Made by a program: the position numbers and the translations under genes
Assembly (NCBI RefSeq): GCF_000165425.1
Contig: NW_001799001.1
Coordinates: forward strand, 1-64,000
Length of the DNA: 64,000 bases
Origin: Paramecium tetraurelia
Taxonomy: Eukaryota > Ciliophora > Oligohymenophorea > Peniculida > Parameciidae
Direction: 5' to 3'
Shown: piece by piece, positions 25,276 through 60,299 of the stretch
How positions within the stretch are numbered: the stretch's first letter is position 1
Layout of the letters: the number at the start of each line of letters is the position of its first letter
The notes under the pieces: model-generated
Databases searched by the model: none
Told to the model about the DNA's origin: nothing
Seen by the model: the letters and a program-made list of their open reading frames with translations, nothing else

Positions 25276-27086
25276 TCAATTTAAGATTCTTTATTTTGTT
25301 TTTTGAATGTACTTAATTACCTTTAGATCTTAAAGTTTTTCACATTTCTTGTGTTTTTTTAATTTCTCATGTTGCAATTTCATCATTGCTATTTTTTCCT
25401 GTATTTTTTTATGTTGCTTTTTGCCATTATACACATAATCCACAGTCGATCCATTTTATTGATTATGAGAATTGGATGATTCTATGTTCAACCCGACAAT
25501 GAACTCATCCAAAAGTTGTCTGCTATCTACTATTCTGTTATTTGGTTCAGGATTTATTTGCACCTTCAATTTGAGTTGCTGTTTCAATTCACACGTTGTC
25601 TCTCCCACATAATTGCTACACAACAATTTTGAGCATTAAACTCTATCAGCCTGTATAAGACATCTCAACTGTGCAATGTGATATTTCATGTAAACTATGT
25701 CTTCATCATCAATATAACAATCTGGACAATAAATTACCCAATCTTTAATGAATTAAAAGAATATAAAGATTTCCTTATAGCATTTGGTGCAAATCAATAC
25801 ATCCTTCGAGGATATAAATAATTTAAACTGAGTTGGATTACTTTTAGATAATTAACGTTCAAGTTCTTGATCTATAAAATATGTCAAATACTCCCTTAAA
25901 ATGGGTAATTTCTCATGGATGAAGATATCCAAGAATAAATTTCTGATTGCTATCACACTCCAAAGTTTGAAATTATCATTCCTAATTTGTCTCAAGAATA
26001 TTTGTTGCATAGAGAAATCATCCATCATTAAAAAGTTGAATGAAGTGTGTATTGAATTTCCTATATTCTTAGCTTAAAAGAAGCTTCCAGCCCCAATTAT
26101 CAAGATATCCCCTTACTTTTAGATTACTTACTTAACAGGTATTTTGTTTTGTAGGAAATACGTAATATTTACATACCATCTTCCCTCCTTCTTATACAAA
26201 TCAGGAATTATTTTCAACAACTAATCCACATGGCATGCATCGATAATGGTCCATAAGCAATCTCCTGGTCCATGATTTATATTGATTTAACTCATACCTT
26301 AAAAATCCTATTATCCTCCAATCCAACAATTGGCAGCTCTCATATATATTTCTGGTACGTTTGCTCCTTTACAGTTCTATCTCAAATACTTCAATCCGTT
26401 GTTTAATAAAAAGAATTTTGGAAAGAAATCAAACAGTCTTTATATTTCATCCTTCCAGTTCTCCATGTCTACATTTACTGCCTAATAAACTTTGTCCTTC
26501 CTATAATTAGTATTATTTAAAAGAAATGCAATCGGATCCTCAACATAATCTTTGTATTACTAGATTGACATTGTAAAAGCCTAATAAAAATCCCCTTCCT
26601 TTGCCTCGATTGTGTCTGTGAATGGGTTTTGAGCTCTTATATCTATTTTTTGGTTTTTATGATGTTTGACCAAATCTGAGAATGTGAATAGATCTTTATT
26701 GAGTTTATCTATTACGTCTTATGGCATTGACCATAAAATTGCTTAATCTTTTTTGAGCCACTTTTCTGGTGATTCCGTGAAACAATCAAGGGCTTTGTCA
26801 ATTTCAACATAGGCACATCTTTACAAATACTACCCATCAACATTTGTTTTATTCAATTCAAAATTTAATAAGTATTTACAAAACAAATTCAGAAACTCTT
26901 GCTTCTCTTAGCTTTGAAATACATTATACTATTCCGAGTAATACTATATATGGTGTCTTATGATACTTTAATAAACCCGCCTTTTTGCTAAATATTTTCG
27001 TATAATTCTATTAATTCTTAGGATTACAATAACTCTAATTCTTTGCTTGTCGGTCTGAAATTGCTCTTTACAAAGTCAACGTACAT
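25276..27086 (-). CDS. KDM6/UTX-like JmjC protein lacking iron ligands
   Basis: Predicted 595 residues with one 23-bp intron. The JmjC region (about 150-380) follows UTX closely: INHGPGDCLW matches the NIGPGDCEW strand, then QKQGDILIIGAGS matches QRPGDLVWINAGT. At the iron site the His-x-Glu of UTX is Gln-x-Asp (GGQQD, the first Gln a TAA codon) and the distal His is Phe (AGSFFQ). So two of three iron ligands are lost and the third is conservative. The GATA-like zinc domain after it is intact: ICTKC and YCPDC. It should bind its partner or histone tail without demethylating. A basic coiled tail ends it. Confidence 0.82.
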
Positions 27087-37294: not shown

Positions 37295-39328
37295 TCAAAT
37301 TCTTCTAATTAATAATCCCATATCCCATTATGCATTTAATCTTCTTTTATCTAAAGTCTCAAACACTCCAACTCCATTAGGCATTCCATTCATAAATACA
37401 CAGGTTACTTTTTCTCCATTACTGAGTTCCAATTACCCGAATCCACAAAATTCCCCTTCTTTGAAATCACCCATATAATGAATCCATTATTAATCCAATT
37501 TTGTAAAATCTTTGTAATCAAATAAATTATTGAAATACTTTGGTTTTGGATTGGTAGCCTTGCCATAACCATCGTATTCTCCAAACTTGAAAGAGCCTTC
37601 ATAAATCAATTTCCCGTTTTAATATAAGGTTCCTTTTCCATGATATTTATCGTTTTTCCAACAGCCATCATAAGAGAACTCATTCGATACGTATTGTCCT
37701 AAGCCATCTCTCAGTCCGTTCAAAACTTCGCCATAATAAGAGCCACCATCATTACAATTCATTTTTCTTTTGTTTCTATTTTCCACTATTAAATTATTCT
37801 TTGTAGTAATTTCTTTGATGTCTTCCATTTATGGCTTTGATTATGGTTCTCCAATAGGAGATACTCTAAAAGAGTTCACATGAGAATAACTCACATTCTT
37901 TGAATTTGCTCTTGATTTTGATATTTTAGTCTCAATTCTTTACTAAACTTCAAAATTGTAAATGATATTGATTGGCTAGATTGGTTGCAACTCACTAATC
38001 TTAGCTTCCAATCTTATCCAATCGGGTCTTATTTCTTAATTGGTAGTCAACATGAATTGCAAATATTAAACCAATTTGTATGAATAATTAGTGTCAACTT
38101 CCTTGATCAATTAATTTAATCGATATTCATCAAACACATTTTAATAGATCTCATAAACAGTCTCATGTTTATGAGGTCCTAAACACAACTATAAAATGCA
38201 CAATCCTAATTAAAACACATCAGATTTCCAAGTTGGCAAGGTTGATTAATCATTCAATAAAAATGCGTTGTATAATTCATTGCTTAATAAGATTTTACTT
38301 TGTTGATTCTAAAATTTCTTCTAAAGTACGTTTGCTTCTTGGTTTATATAAATAAGTTTATACAACTATGAGCTATCTATCAGATGAGTTAGCACAATGT
38401 GATTTAGAGTTACATTGCCATGAACTATGCCTTTTAGATGTAAAGAATATAATGCTTCAACCATATTCTACAGAATCAGCCAAATCTCATGTTCTTGATA
38501 GTGCTTATGCTTTATTGTACTTTCACAATCGGAATGAATATAATCCAATAAGGTACACACTCTGAAAGTGCCAAAACACAAACAAACATATTTTTTGGTA
38601 TGAATCAAATGTATATTTACTAAATTGGCATGAGTTAATTATTGCTTTTACAATTGCAGCAGTTTCTCTTATTATTCATATACTGAATATTTATCAAATA
38701 TGAACACTCGTAGACTCAATTTATATGAGGGATTCAATTTATGAGTTAAAGTATAATGTTAAAGATTAAGAGGATCATTTTACAATTCGGAATCAACGTC
38801 AAAATATTTGTACAATAAAGGCATTTGTGTTTCGTTTAAGGACTAATGAGAAGGCATAGTCTTCAACATTTAAAGGCATGATTCCTCATATTTCATTTTC
38901 AAATAATTTGAATCGTATTAGGTCTTCAATTGCTGTTGTTATTGTAAATACTATTATTACTATTGGAGCAATAATTGCTGCTATTCCAATTATTACTATT
39001 GGAGTAGTTATGCTTATTACTCTAATTATGGATCTTGTTGTTGTTAATCAGGTACAATTGTTTAAAATTATTAATTGTAATTGTCAATGAGTTGCTATTA
39101 TTAGAGCAGGAATTGGTTTTGTTGAGGTTACTGGATGGTTGTAAAGAAAGATTATGACTGATGTATGGGTAAAGTGTTGACTGACAATCCTAACAGCTCT
39201 TCTTGCTATTTTTGAGACCAAGTTTTTATCAAAAATTGCTGTTCTGGTGATAATCTATTGAAATCAAGTGGTGGAGTATTTGAATTACGACTCGTTTCCA
39301 GTGGTTGCAGCCGTTGTGATTAGGCCAT
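37295..39328 (-). CDS. Pseudokinase with poly-Q region fused to MORN repeats
   Basis: Intronless, 677 residues, ATG 39328 (MAQSQRLQPLE) to TGA 37295. Residues 60-140 are poly-Gln from mixed TAA, TAG and CAA codons. A kinase-like fold follows: LVNIHLIHTKKYVCLC, ALYSLHLKGIVHGN in place of the catalytic HRD loop, and SDVFQLGLCILQLCLG matching DVWSLG. HGN has no catalytic Asp and no DFG is seen, so it is a pseudokinase. The C-terminal 170 residues hold MORN-type repeats (YYGEVLNGLRDGLGQYV, YDGCWKNDKYHGKGTLYQNG, YMGDFKEGEFCGFGQLELSNG-like). MORN proteins link to membranes and cortex. A scaffold at the cell cortex is inferred. Confidence 0.8.
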
Positions 39329-39391
39329 GCTTTGTTTGGATGAATCATTTAATGTTTGATTGAATTATCCCAAATACATATAATTATTAAT

Positions 39392-40587
39392 ATGGGAAAT
39401 TGTTAAACTCATTGTTATCAAAAGAGTGCTAGTTAAGTGAATAGCGTTGATTGCACTAAATTAATCATTCATGTGAAAACGTGGCAAAAAGAGGCCTTCT
39501 CATTGTTCGATTATGAGAATGCTGCCAATGTGTAAGAACAAACCTTTTAGGTAAATATATACAATTATAACGGCAGATTAATTCAGATGGTTATTTGGTG
39601 GGTCGAAACTAAGTGGAATGGACTGAAAATGAATCTATCATCAAGGATTAACTTTGCAAGATAAAGAAAAAAAATGAAAATTACTACTTAGTAAATTCCT
39701 TCGTAATGAATGAGGATTAGAAATCAGTAATTTAAGAAAACGAAGAATGTCATACTATTGGAAATAAGTAACAACTCTATATTTATTTTTTAGAACTGTG
39801 TCTGGCAAAATAGGTAACAAAATTTGGAAGGTGATTCATGAAAATGGAATTCCCCTAAAGGAAGGGGATGTAATCAAATTAGGAAGAGTCAAATTCACTA
39901 TCCGATCTATTGTTTTGGATGTTCAACATGTTCAATCCATTTTGGAGTTCGAATCACAATAATCAAGTGTCTCTGATTAATAGATGTGTAGGATCTGTTG
40001 TTCCTCTTAGTAAACTGCTAAGAATCCTCTTTTGAATCCTTGTAAATGTAGTGGGTCTATCAAGTACATTCATTTGGAATGTTTAAAGACTTGGTTGAGA
40101 ATGAAATTAGAAAATCGACAAAGCGAAAATTGTACTGTTTATTTGTGGAAGAACTTGGAATGTGAGTTGTGCAAATTCAATTTTCCACCTAAGTTCAAAA
40201 GTGATGATGCCTACTATGATTTGATTGAATTGAGTAAGCCAAATGATTACCCTTATTTAATGATGGAATTCACCAATAAATAAGTATTATTTAGACTCAA
40301 TTATGAAGGGCTAATAAATTGAATGGAATAACAGTTCGGGTGTCTATATTGTTAAATTCTCGAACTCCAGAGACCTTCGACTTGGAAGGTCCAATGATAC
40401 TGATGTTAGGGTTAATGATATATCAGTAAGCAGGAATCACGCTCGACTTTTTGTTTCTGATAATTAAGTTTATCTTTTCGATAATCATTCTAAATTTGGC
40501 ACACTATAATAAATAAGAGAAGAAAAATTATAAATTTAAAGAGGCCTGGAAGTTTAAATTGGAAGAAGCCTAATTTCCTTTTAATGA
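39392..40587 (+). CDS. FHA-RINGv-FHA protein, predicted E3 ubiquitin ligase
   Basis: Predicted 372 residues, introns of 26, 26 and 25 bp. MGNCQTHC at the start could be myristoylated and palmitoylated. An N-terminal FHA-like region (LVGRNQVEW, HTIGNKTVSG, GDVIKLGRVKFTIR) precedes a RINGv finger with all ligands: MCRICC, PCKCSGS, HLECLKTW, CELCKF. A second, clear FHA domain follows: RLGRSNDTDVRVND, SVSRNHARLFV and FGTL. FHA domains bind phosphothreonine, so this ligase probably recognises phosphorylated targets. The third intron, ending AAG, joins the finger to the second FHA. Confidence 0.83.
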
Positions 40588-57678: not shown

Positions 57679-58446
57679 TCATGGTTAATTCTCAACAATG
57701 TTTAATGAATCATCCATATGAATGAAATGACTATCTTAGATCATCTTTTAACCTTCTATAAACTTATTTTGAAACTAGATTAACAATTATTTTTATTCAT
57801 CTTCATTTATGGGCTCAAAAATTGTATCTCTCAAACTGAATGCTTGTGCTTCTGCTAACAATTAATTTCTAAATTCCTCCACATCAAAATCATTTTTCAC
57901 GAACATAATTGATTTATTGCTATTCAGATAAATTGAAAAAGCTTATTTCAAATTTTATTTGTCTTATTCCTCATTGTCGCTTAACTAAAAGTCAGTTATT
58001 ACTATAGTGATCTTCTCTTTGAATTTTTTAAAATACTTATAAAGTTCCAATAGTTTTTTCCTCATTAGATCTGTTCTTTCAAAGTTGACTAAAAAGAAAA
58101 AATGTGCAATATGGTTTTTCTGCATGTATTGCTAAAATATTGTAATGTTGATTTCCCTTTATTCAATGTTTTCAAAATCTAATGCAGGTGTATACACTAA
58201 ATCAATATCCTTCCTTATTAAACATTCTTAAATCCCTTATTCTAGCTAATTTGAGTTTTTCAAAGTATTAACAATTTTTTTAAATAACTTTGTTTTTCCA
58301 ACTCCTGGTGGACCAACGAGAATATATTTGAGTGTTTAGAAACTTTGATTGTTGTTTAACTTTTTGACTTTCTCCTAATAAATTTAATAAAGTGCATAAA
58401 TAGAAACACCAATAGCTAAAACATCTAATAGGTTTTAAGCCTTCAT
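57679..58446 (-). CDS. P-loop NTPase with N-terminal membrane helix (AIG1/AAA-like)
   Basis: Intronless, 255 residues. After MKAQ a hydrophobic helix (LLDVLAIGVSIYALYQIY) may anchor it. Walker A is LVGPPGVGKTKLF; the fold continues with alternating strands and helices (IAHFFFLVNFERTDLMRKKL, KITIVITDFQLSD). The GPPGVGKT form is AAA-like, while the spacing to the VNFERTDLM strand recalls AIG1/septin-like GTPases, and no Walker-B DExx or NKxD is clear. So a nucleotide-binding membrane protein of uncertain class. Confidence 0.62.
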
Positions 58447-58633
58447 CACGCAGGTTAATTTTTTTAATGAATTTTCGAATGTCCTCTGTTTATAAATTTG
58501 AATAATTCTATTAAAGATAATTTAAGAATAGTATGTATAAAAAGTATTTAATAAATATTGAAACTATTGTTTACGAGACAGGAAATGAAAAGAATGATTG
58601 CATAAATATGAATAACAATAATTCAGTGAAAAA

Positions 58634-60299
58634 TCATTTTTTAGGTTTTCTGAGTTTAGCATCTTATCTTTATTGCATTTCTAGATCGTCCTTCTCCTTT
58701 TATGCTTCCTATACTTTGTTGCGTTTAAGTTATCTTAAGTCTATTATAATGTTAACAGAGTACCAGGCCTGAATGATGCATCGCTTAAGAGAAATGGATT
58801 AGGTTTAAACACTTTGCATTCATATGGACGTATGTAATTGACATCCCAATATCTGACTTCTCCGAATTCAATATATCCCATGTAGGTTCCATAGACCTTG
58901 CAGACCTTCTTCCCCCTTTTTTTGATTTCTCCAGACAGGTAATCAGATGCCTTCCATCTGACACTATCCAATTCAACCTAAGCTGAAATATCATTCTTTT
59001 TATCCAAGAAGGTAATCTTGCCTTTGCATTCGACTTTCATGGGTCCCCAGAAACTTCCACTGTATTCTTCTCCTGCAAAATTGTATTCAATTAATTCTCC
59101 ATCAGCAAATTGCAAAAAGCGTTTCCCCTTGTTTTTCAAGGAGAGGGAGTTGACTCCTGCTTTGGCTTCGTAATTATAATAACCATAAAATTTATAACTA
59201 TTTTTGGGACCAATAGTTAGAAAATAACTAACTGGAGGGTGGTGTGAGATCTATTCTACATAGGCAGTGGTGCCATCTTGATAGAACCCGGAAATGGTTT
59301 CGCCCAAGATGGGATTTAAGGGTTTGAGAAAGGAGCAATTCAAATAGAAATTACCTAAGGTGGCACAAATAATTAGCTTCATCTAATAATAGGGTTGATA
59401 CTTTACTCTTTCGATGGGATCTTTCTCGAGGACTGCTCTGTTAATGTAAAGGGGGAAGAGACAACTAGACATCAAGACCTTTTCAAGGGCTGACTTGGGA
59501 ATCATGGCCTTGATAGGGAATGACACGGTTGTTAAATTTAAATTACCAGACAAAATCTGTTTACCAATTTATTTGATCAATTCTTTGCCTATTGCTCTCA
59601 GAGTTCTTATTAATTTTTTGTTTTTGCACACTTTACCTCCGTCTTTGTGTGCTAAGGTTGATCTGGATTCTTCCTTCGATTAAAGTGGTTTAAAATTAGA
59701 GACAGCCTTCAAAATTAATTCTTCAGTATTGTCTGTGTTATAATCGTGTATTTCCCTGGCCCATTTATAGATGGCTGCATTCTTGGCCTCCTCCTCTGAT
59801 ATTTCTCGCTCTTCGTCTTCTTCATCCTCCTCCTATATTACTTCAGGTTGATCAGGGATTTCTTCAAGTTATGATTTGTCGTTTTGGTTATTTTTTACTT
59901 CAGCTTGAATTTGAGGATAACTGACGATCACACTCAAATCTTCCTAAAAGTCGATTTTAATTTCCTCCTGCTATTACGACTCTTTTTTCATATTTTACTA
60001 TTTTTCAAGAAGACTCATAACAAAAAGAGTAAAGGGAGTTTTGCCAACGACGAATGAGGGACATATGGAGGCTGAGACGTTTTCGTCCTGCACTTAATAT
60101 CCGACTGAATTCTTCTTGGGTCTTTCTTCTATTTCTAACTCTACTTCTTGCTATTGATTGGTTCTACAGGATCTAATGTTTAAGTTTATAACTAATCAGA
60201 TTACCTGTCTACTTACTGATTCTCAGGTGCCAACTGTTCCGATATCTCTACTGGTTTTTTGTTTTCATCTTTCTTTTTAGATGATGAGCAGCAAAACAT
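58634..60299 (-). CDS. Oxysterol-binding protein-related protein (ORP)
   Basis: Predicted 536 residues; introns of 32 and 23 bp. The ligand-binding domain (about 250-500) has the family marks LGETISGFYQDG and the fingerprint YVEQISHHPPVSYF, with KVECKGKITFLDKK and FWGPM-type strands after it. The second intron joins FRPD to the typical basic helical end (DLRQLKRNKVQEAQKEKDD). No PH domain; the N-terminal 230 residues are acidic and unfolded, rich in Glu near 59,800. ORPs move sterols and phosphoinositides between membranes at contact sites. MFCC at the start could be acylated. Confidence 0.9.

What the first reader, a model, noticed from the sequence alone, without database searches (positions are those of the whole stretch)
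25276..27086. UTX-like JmjC protein has lost two of three iron ligands
The JmjC core and the following GATA-like zinc domain align well with UTX/KDM6, but His-x-Glu reads Gln-x-Asp and the distal His reads Phe. The first replacement is a TAA codon, glutamine only in this code. The rest of the fold, including the strand GPGDCLW and the zinc cysteines, is kept under selection. A reader or scaffold that binds histone H3 without demethylating it would be a new role for this family in ciliates, where H3K27 methylation guides genome rearrangement.
Basis: partly seen in the sequence, partly recalled or inferred. Interest (0 to 1): 0.75.

Follow-up and report, generated by a model that had tools for sequence, protein, structure and literature searches.

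The report
Iron-less UTX-like protein in Paramecium
A Paramecium relative of the enzymes that erase the histone mark H3K27me3 has lost amino acids that hold the catalytic iron, yet both duplicate copies keep the altered pocket largely unchanged, so it probably works by binding something on chromatin rather than by erasing the mark.

Summary
It is KDM6-like: a family profile hits KDM6A/B/UTY at 1e-31 to 5e-28, JARID2 only at 2e-7. Aligned without gaps to intact paralogues, His-x-Glu reads Gln(TAA)-x-Asp and the distal His reads Phe; two presumed 2-oxoglutarate contacts are replaced too. It is not a lone oddity. Searches find eight KDM6-like genes: three keep HQE...H, five do not, with three replacement sets. 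One clade of all five is rejected (AU p=0.0003), so the site was lost at least twice, three times on the best tree. The 13 other JmjC loci found keep the first motif half; 12 show the distal His. The window gene and its syntenic duplicate share the replacements; dN/dS is about 0.10 overall (dS near saturation), and the former active-site strands are more conserved than the rest (68/76 versus 336/519). Most likely a pseudo-demethylase kept for binding. H3 reading or a DNA-elimination role is untested; no structure could be computed.

The parts
25276..27086 (-). whole gene, KDM6-like pseudo-demethylase, 595 aa
   Evidence: spliced translation open from ATG to TGA; syntenic duplicate with the same structure
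26967..27086 (-). exon 1 (40 codons)
   Evidence: conserved with the duplicate L010
26944..26966 (-). 23-nt intron, GTA...TAG
   Evidence: homologous 23-nt intron in L010; taking it out joins two conserved reading frames
25276..26943 (-). exon 2 with JmjC and zinc domain, TGA stop at 25278-25276
26032..26349 (-). JmjC domain match (Pfam PF02373)
26251..26361 (-). former active-site strands 1 (residues 235-271; boundaries set by me)
   Evidence: 32 of 37 identical in the duplicate
26026..26142 (-). former active-site strands 2 (residues 308-346; boundaries set by me)
   Evidence: 36 of 39 identical in the duplicate
26311..26313 (-). first iron-ligand position: His replaced by Gln (TAA)
26305..26307 (-). 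second iron-ligand position: Glu replaced by Asp (GAT)
26077..26079 (-). distal iron-ligand position: His replaced by Phe (TTT)
26338..26340 (-). 2-oxoglutarate-contact position (role recalled): Lys replaced by Arg
26320..26322 (-). 2-oxoglutarate-contact position (role recalled): Thr replaced by Ile
26047..26049 (-). new His (SIHTSFN) where intact paralogues and KDM6B have Asn; candidate relocated ligand
   Evidence: also His in L010, not in the other six paralogues
25717..25791 (-). zinc-binding knuckle, C-x2-C ... C-x2-C
   Evidence: four Cys invariant in 8 of 8 paralogues; aligned to the KDM6A zinc domain

Best explanation
It is a KDM6-type (UTX/JMJD3-like) JmjC plus zinc-domain protein of a Paramecium that cannot hold the catalytic iron in the usual way. 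It is therefore a pseudo-demethylase, one of five among the eight KDM6-like genes found in this genome. Shown: the ligand loss, its sharing by a syntenic duplicate, at least two losses in the family (if the site is not regained), and purifying selection that is strong on the altered pocket. Inferred: it no longer demethylates; the barrel is held metal-free by bulky side chains (Ile, Phe, Phe) where iron and 2-oxoglutarate would sit; and the module survives as a binding surface, for the H3 tail or for a partner such as a Polycomb-type complex or an active paralogue. In that role it would tune H3K27/K9 methylation, as inactive JARID2 and Epe1 do, by occupancy or recruitment and not by chemistry.
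For: Profile match to KDM6A/B/UTY at 1e-31 to 5e-30 over JmjC and zinc domain, 5e-28 for one shorter KDM6B chain. Gap-free alignment to intact paralogues around both motif halves. Q-x-D...F plus Lys to Arg and Thr to Ile in both duplicates, with identical codons at the three ligand positions. Synteny over at least 6.7 kb at 81.6% nucleotide identity. dN/dS 0.096 overall, 0.052 in JmjC, 0.018 in the pocket strands, each better than neutral by 2dlnL 229.6, 99.0 and 82.4. Pocket strands 68/76 identical against 161/222 in the rest of the core (p=0.0025) and 336/519 in the rest of the protein (p=5e-6). Three paralogues with intact sites remain to do the chemistry. Of 13 non-KDM6 JmjC loci none shows a lost ligand; in one only the first half was seen.
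Against: No biochemistry, expression or localisation data, and no structure. dS between the duplicates is 1.7 to 3.1 by region, near saturation, so the omega values are rough. Constraint is weaker than on the intact pair (JmjC omega 0.062 against 0.017). Asp is kept and a new His is conserved in the second strand set, so some metal binding is not excluded. Nothing computed shows histone binding; the human KDM6 methyl-lysine pocket is polar with the cofactors at its bottom. KDM6's Pro that stacks on H3 P30 (its place in the motif recalled) reads Gly even in the intact paralogues, so the substrate itself may differ. The text of the Paramecium PRC2 pull-down paper names no JmjC subunit (PMC10073204, word counts and passages).
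Confidence: 0.72

Rival explanations
1. Relocated metal site: Asp and the new His at the SIHTSFN position, with Gln as a weak third ligand, still bind a metal and support some oxygenase chemistry.
For: Asp kept; the new His is conserved in both duplicates, ten residues after the lost distal ligand. That it would face the cofactor is recalled from KDM4/KDM6 structures.
Against: The presumed 2-oxoglutarate Lys and Thr are also gone; Phe fills the distal ligand place; the other ligand-less paralogues have no such His (Thr in L014/L015, Ser in L016). No precedent known to me for such a relocation in JmjC proteins.
Confidence: 0.1
2. Regulatory partner: the inactive protein pairs with an intact KDM6 paralogue (L011, L012 or L013) and controls its activity or targeting, as many pseudoenzymes do.
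For: Intact and ligand-less paralogues coexist, and pairs of both kinds are retained.
Against: No evidence here of dimerisation or co-expression; KDM6 enzymes are not known to me as obligate dimers.
Confidence: 0.13
3. Decaying duplicate: an enzyme gene on the way to becoming a pseudogene.
For: The stem branch of the pair is longer (0.70) than that of the intact L012/L013 pair (0.29); dN/dS in JmjC is higher than in the intact pair (0.062 against 0.017).
Against: Both duplicates keep full-length open frames, the same splice site and the same replaced residues; omega is far below 1; the former active-site strands are more conserved than the rest of the protein.
Confidence: 0.02
4. Artefact: wrong frame, splice or alignment hides a normal HxE...H.
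For: The first ligand is a TAA codon, so a wrong code would matter; Paramecium introns are tiny (recalled).
Against: No gap is needed to align either motif half to L011; the duplicate on another contig shows the same residues and codons; 25 in-frame TAA/TAG codons in the long ORF make the ciliate code certain in practice.
Confidence: 0.02

Closest known systems
KDM6A/UTX, KDM6B/JMJD3 and UTY (H3K27 demethylases)
   Same: JmjC domain followed by helical and four-Cys zinc domain; GPGDC-W strand in the window protein; best sequence match by far.
   Different: Those keep His-x-Glu...His; UTY has weak activity but an intact iron site and is active in vitro (PMC4140284, passages). The window protein lacks two ligands.
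JARID2
   Same: JmjC protein whose demethylase residues are substituted and which acts without catalysis on H3K27 methylation through PRC2 (PMC11241480, passages).
   Different: KDM5-like, with JmjN, ARID and C5HC2 zinc finger; profile match of the window family to it is weak (2e-7).
Epe1 of fission yeast
   Same: JmjC protein with a non-canonical HXE...Y iron motif and a non-enzymatic role against heterochromatin (PMC7192584, passages); the Tyr is paralleled by paralogues L014/L015.
   Different: H3K9/HP1 system; keeps His-x-Glu; sequence not compared here.
Tetrahymena Jmj1p
   Same: Ciliate JmjC protein called an H3K27 demethylase that helps confine heterochromatin and small RNAs to eliminated DNA (PMC5357732, passages).
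Intact paralogue L011 in the same genome
   Same: 41% identical, same domain order.
   Different: Has HQE...H and the Lys and Thr of the presumed 2-oxoglutarate site.

Membership tests
KDM6 (UTX/JMJD3) family, by descent | JmjC domain with KDM6-like sequence, closer to KDM6 than to other JmjC families | tested here: met
   among solved structures only: KDM6A/B/UTY 1e-31 to 5e-28, JARID2 2e-7, entry 2ypd (JmjC demethylation protein 2C) 4e-4 with the family profile; single protein 2e-11 to KDM6B
KDM6 (UTX/JMJD3) family, by descent | helical linker and GATA-like zinc domain with four Cys | tested here: met
   by sequence alignment
active JmjC Fe(II)/2-oxoglutarate demethylase | His-x-Asp/Glu...His iron triad | tested here: not met
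   Gln-x-Asp...Phe in both duplicates
active JmjC Fe(II)/2-oxoglutarate demethylase | 2-oxoglutarate-binding Lys and Thr (identity recalled) | tested here: not met
   Arg and Ile; Asn of the NIN strand kept
active JmjC Fe(II)/2-oxoglutarate demethylase | H3K27 demethylase activity | not testable with these tools
   needs purified protein
pseudo-demethylase (JARID2/Epe1 kind, by way of working) | JmjC fold kept under selection without the iron triad | tested here: met
   fold inferred from sequence only
pseudo-demethylase (JARID2/Epe1 kind, by way of working) | non-catalytic effect on chromatin | not testable with these tools
   needs knockdown and pull-down
H3K27me3 reader | binding of methylated H3 tail | not testable with these tools
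   no structure (all 13 attempts met a full queue) and no assay
JARID2 | JmjN, ARID and C5HC2 zinc finger | tested here: not met
   in the window protein (exon 2) Pfam finds only JmjC above its cut-off

The most novel reading that the evidence does not exclude
Paramecium has turned most of its UTX family into metal-free chromatin binders. Five of eight genes lost the iron site in at least two and probably three separate events, each with its own filling of the cavity: a hydrophobic plug (Ile, Phe) in the window pair, a Lys facing the kept Glu in L014/L015, and Ser in L016. These proteins would read or shield H3K27me3/K9me3 tails, or dock on PRC2, to set which germline sequences are eliminated.
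Probability: 0.25. Interest if true: 0.82.

Novelty: new variant of a known kind. Interest (0 to 1): 0.58.

Why it matters
Ciliates use Polycomb-type H3K27/H3K9 methylation to mark DNA for removal, and I found nothing in the library searched on what reverses the mark in Paramecium. A UTX family in which ligand-less members outnumber intact ones (five to three in this genome), with the altered pocket conserved across a duplication, gives concrete genes for asking whether KDM6 proteins can act purely as binders. Demethylase-independent roles of UTX and UTY are known in animals, but there the iron site is intact; here binding and catalysis appear to have been separated more than once in one genome.

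Tried and rejected
Artefact of frame, splice or code: rejected, because the duplicate carries the same residues and codons and the spliced frame is open. Decaying gene: rejected by dN/dS and by the pattern of conservation. A general loss of JmjC ligands in this genome: not seen; the 13 other JmjC loci found keep them as far as seen (in L024 only the first half was seen; the matched exons of L020 and L021 translate identically and those of L018 and L022 nearly so, perhaps duplicate or allelic contigs, so the number of distinct genes may be smaller). The search that found them scores only its best candidates, so both counts, 8 and 13, are lower bounds. All five ligand-less genes as one clade: rejected (AU p=0.00026). 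One shared loss for the window pair and L014/L015: not rejected (p=0.425). I chose these groups from the ligand table after the first tree had been printed. My idea that a shared C-terminal motif ties the window pair to L011 failed against shuffles (window tail 1006 and L010 tail 125 of 2000 shuffles reach the score). The first dN/dS run used a frame that read through the intron at the N-terminus; one search repeats the window pair with the correct exons; the other pairs were not repeated. In one search the window gene against L011 gave no usable dS (saturated). Relatives outside this genome: none confirmed in genome contigs or viral contigs. tRNA and Rfam scans of the window gave nothing (ARAGORN with the bacterial code).

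Full report
What is there. The interval 25276-27086 is one protein-coding gene on the minus strand read with the ciliate code. Comparison with its duplicate shows the ATG at 27086, exon 1 to 26967, a 23-nt GTA...TAG intron at 26966-26944, and exon 2 to a TGA at 25278-25276; the product has 595 residues. The window is part of a 69-Mb genome in 231 contigs. A Paramecium of the aurelia kind is my inference from the genome size, the code, the tiny intron and the paired duplicates; no call names the organism.

Family. Pfam finds JmjC at 52.5 bits. The single protein matches human KDM6B at 2e-11. A profile of eight paralogues matches KDM6A, KDM6B and UTY at 1e-31 to 5e-30 across JmjC, helical and zinc regions (5e-28 for a shorter KDM6B chain), JARID2 only at 2e-7, and entry 2ypd, JmjC demethylation protein 2C, at 4e-4. 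This compares with solved structures only. The four zinc cysteines are invariant in 8 of 8 paralogues.

The ligands. Against KDM6B and three intact paralogues, the window protein and its duplicate L010 read Gln-x-Asp for His-x-Glu and Phe for the distal His. The codons TAA, GAT and TTT are identical in both. The Lys and Thr that I recall as 2-oxoglutarate contacts read Arg and Ile; the Asn of the NIN strand is kept. UTY's iron ligands His1093, Glu1095 and His1173, and its four zinc cysteines, are as given in PMC4140284 (passages). A new His appears in both duplicates at a place where intact paralogues and KDM6B have Asn (SIHTSFN). It is the only sign that I saw of a possible replacement ligand.

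Not alone. Four KDM6-like queries each return the same eight genes and no others at E up to 1; the tool scores only its best candidates, so eight is a lower bound. Three (L011, L012, L013) keep HQE...H with Lys and Thr. Five do not: the window gene and L010 (Q-x-D...F), L014 and L015 (K-x-E...Y), and L016 (S-x-D...S). The 29 JmjC exon matches fall, by my grouping, into 21 loci, eight of them KDM6-like. The other 13 all show the first half of the iron motif and 12 show the distal His; in L024 only the first half was seen. In this genome the loss is confined to the KDM6-like group as far as examined.

How often. On a tree built without the ligand and presumed co-substrate columns the fewest changes are three. 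Forcing all five ligand-less genes together is rejected (p=0.00026), as are the window pair with L016 (p=0.00005) and L014/L015 with L016 (p=0.0023). The window pair with L014/L015 is not rejected (p=0.425). So, if the site is not regained, there were at least two losses and perhaps three. Caveats: the groups were chosen after the first tree was seen, the outgroup fills 35% of the columns on a long branch, L016 is also long, and the branch joining the window pair to L011 is unsupported (36/6).

Selection. The window gene and L010 lie in a collinear block of at least 6.7 kb at 81.6% nucleotide identity (the match runs to the ends of the stretches fetched), as expected of a whole-genome or segmental duplication; the other pairs were not tested for synteny. 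With correct exons, dN/dS is 0.096 over 594 codons, 0.101 in the N-terminal part, 0.052 in JmjC, 0.067 in helical plus zinc, 0.018 in the two former active-site strand sets, and 0.229 in the C-terminal tail; all reject neutrality. dS is 1.7 to 3.1, near saturation, so the values are rough; plain identity agrees for the pocket: strands 68/76, rest of the JmjC-zinc core 161/222 (p=0.0025), rest of protein 336/519 (p=5e-6) (the strand boundaries were my choice). Against the rest of the protein the same excess is seen in L014/L015 (64/76 against 417/688) and in the intact pair (73/76 against 397/474); within the core it is significant only for the window pair (p=0.085 and 0.155 for the others). 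The intact pair evolves more slowly (JmjC omega 0.017 against 0.062 for the window pair and 0.075 for L014/L015), so constraint after the loss is strong but weaker than on the enzyme.

How it most likely works. With two ligands and two presumed co-substrate contacts gone in both duplicates, ordinary Fe(II)/2-oxoglutarate chemistry is very unlikely. The conserved altered pocket says that the module is used. I read the Ile, Phe and Phe replacements as a hydrophobic filling that keeps the barrel folded without metal; this is inference without a structure. The module may bind the H3 tail, since the H3 peptide lies on the JmjC domain and can extend to the zinc domain in UTX (PMC13068663, passages), or a partner. 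The human methyl-lysine cavity is polar and not an aromatic cage, with cofactors at its bottom (same passages), so a reader role needs proof. Precedents for non-catalytic JmjC proteins are JARID2 (PMC11241480, passages) and Epe1 with its HXE...Y motif (PMC7192584, passages). In Tetrahymena the JmjC protein Jmj1p helps confine heterochromatin and DNA elimination (PMC5357732, passages). In Paramecium Ezl1 writes both H3K9 and H3K27 methylation (PMC6586856 and PMC8788455, passages), and PtCAF1 pull-downs list Ezl1, Eed, Suz12, Rnf1 and Rnf2 (PMC10073204, passages; the words JmjC and Jumonji do not occur in that main text; its supplementary tables were not seen). PMC11723920 mentions only the Tetrahymena Jmj1 (passages), and PMC5312943, on Oxytricha, does not mention JmjC.

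Known or new. Inactive JmjC proteins are known, so the kind is known. Searches listed no paper whose title or opening abstract deals with KDM6-like genes of Paramecium or with KDM6 proteins lacking the iron triad. Several lists were capped (20 of 379, 20 of 24, 15 of 23, 25 of 2,417, 15 of 30, 20 of 34), most listed papers were not opened, and the library holds open-licence papers only; the Tetrahymena JMJD3-homologue paper (Chung and Yao 2012) was not held.

What is missing. No structure: the prediction queue was full at all 13 attempts. No other ciliate sequences were available (none confirmed). No expression data.

Noticed in passing
G000 contigs C196, C202, C166 (L014, L015, L016): Further KDM6-like genes lacking the iron triad, with different replacements (K-x-E...Y and S-x-D...S); L014 has a C-terminal tail of about 190 residues against about 100 in the window gene.
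   Followed up: partly
window 25477-25512 (C-terminal tail): In the otherwise diverged tail a short stretch, LDEFIVGLN-x-ES, is identical in the duplicate but for the one residue x: a candidate docking motif.
   Followed up: no
window 37295-39487, minus: ORF of 730 aa with MORN repeats and a kinase-like region that scores below Pfam's cut-off (19.8 bits against 31.7): possibly a divergent or inactive kinase.
   Followed up: no
window 57679-60093, minus: ORF of 804 aa with an oxysterol-binding domain in its first half and a weak NTPase match in the second (below cut-off); may be two genes or a fusion.
   Followed up: no
G000 C118 (15.8 kb) and C146 (11.0 kb): Short contigs carrying JmjC exons whose translations are identical (L021 to L020) or nearly identical (L022 to L018) to those on long contigs; may be alleles or assembly duplicates.
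   Followed up: no
window 27.7-28.5 kb, minus: Neighbouring gene pieces resemble a calcineurin-like phosphatase by eye ([14 protein letters not shown], recalled motif); the two short ORFs tested gave no Pfam match on their own. They are strongly conserved in the syntenic duplicate.
   Followed up: partly
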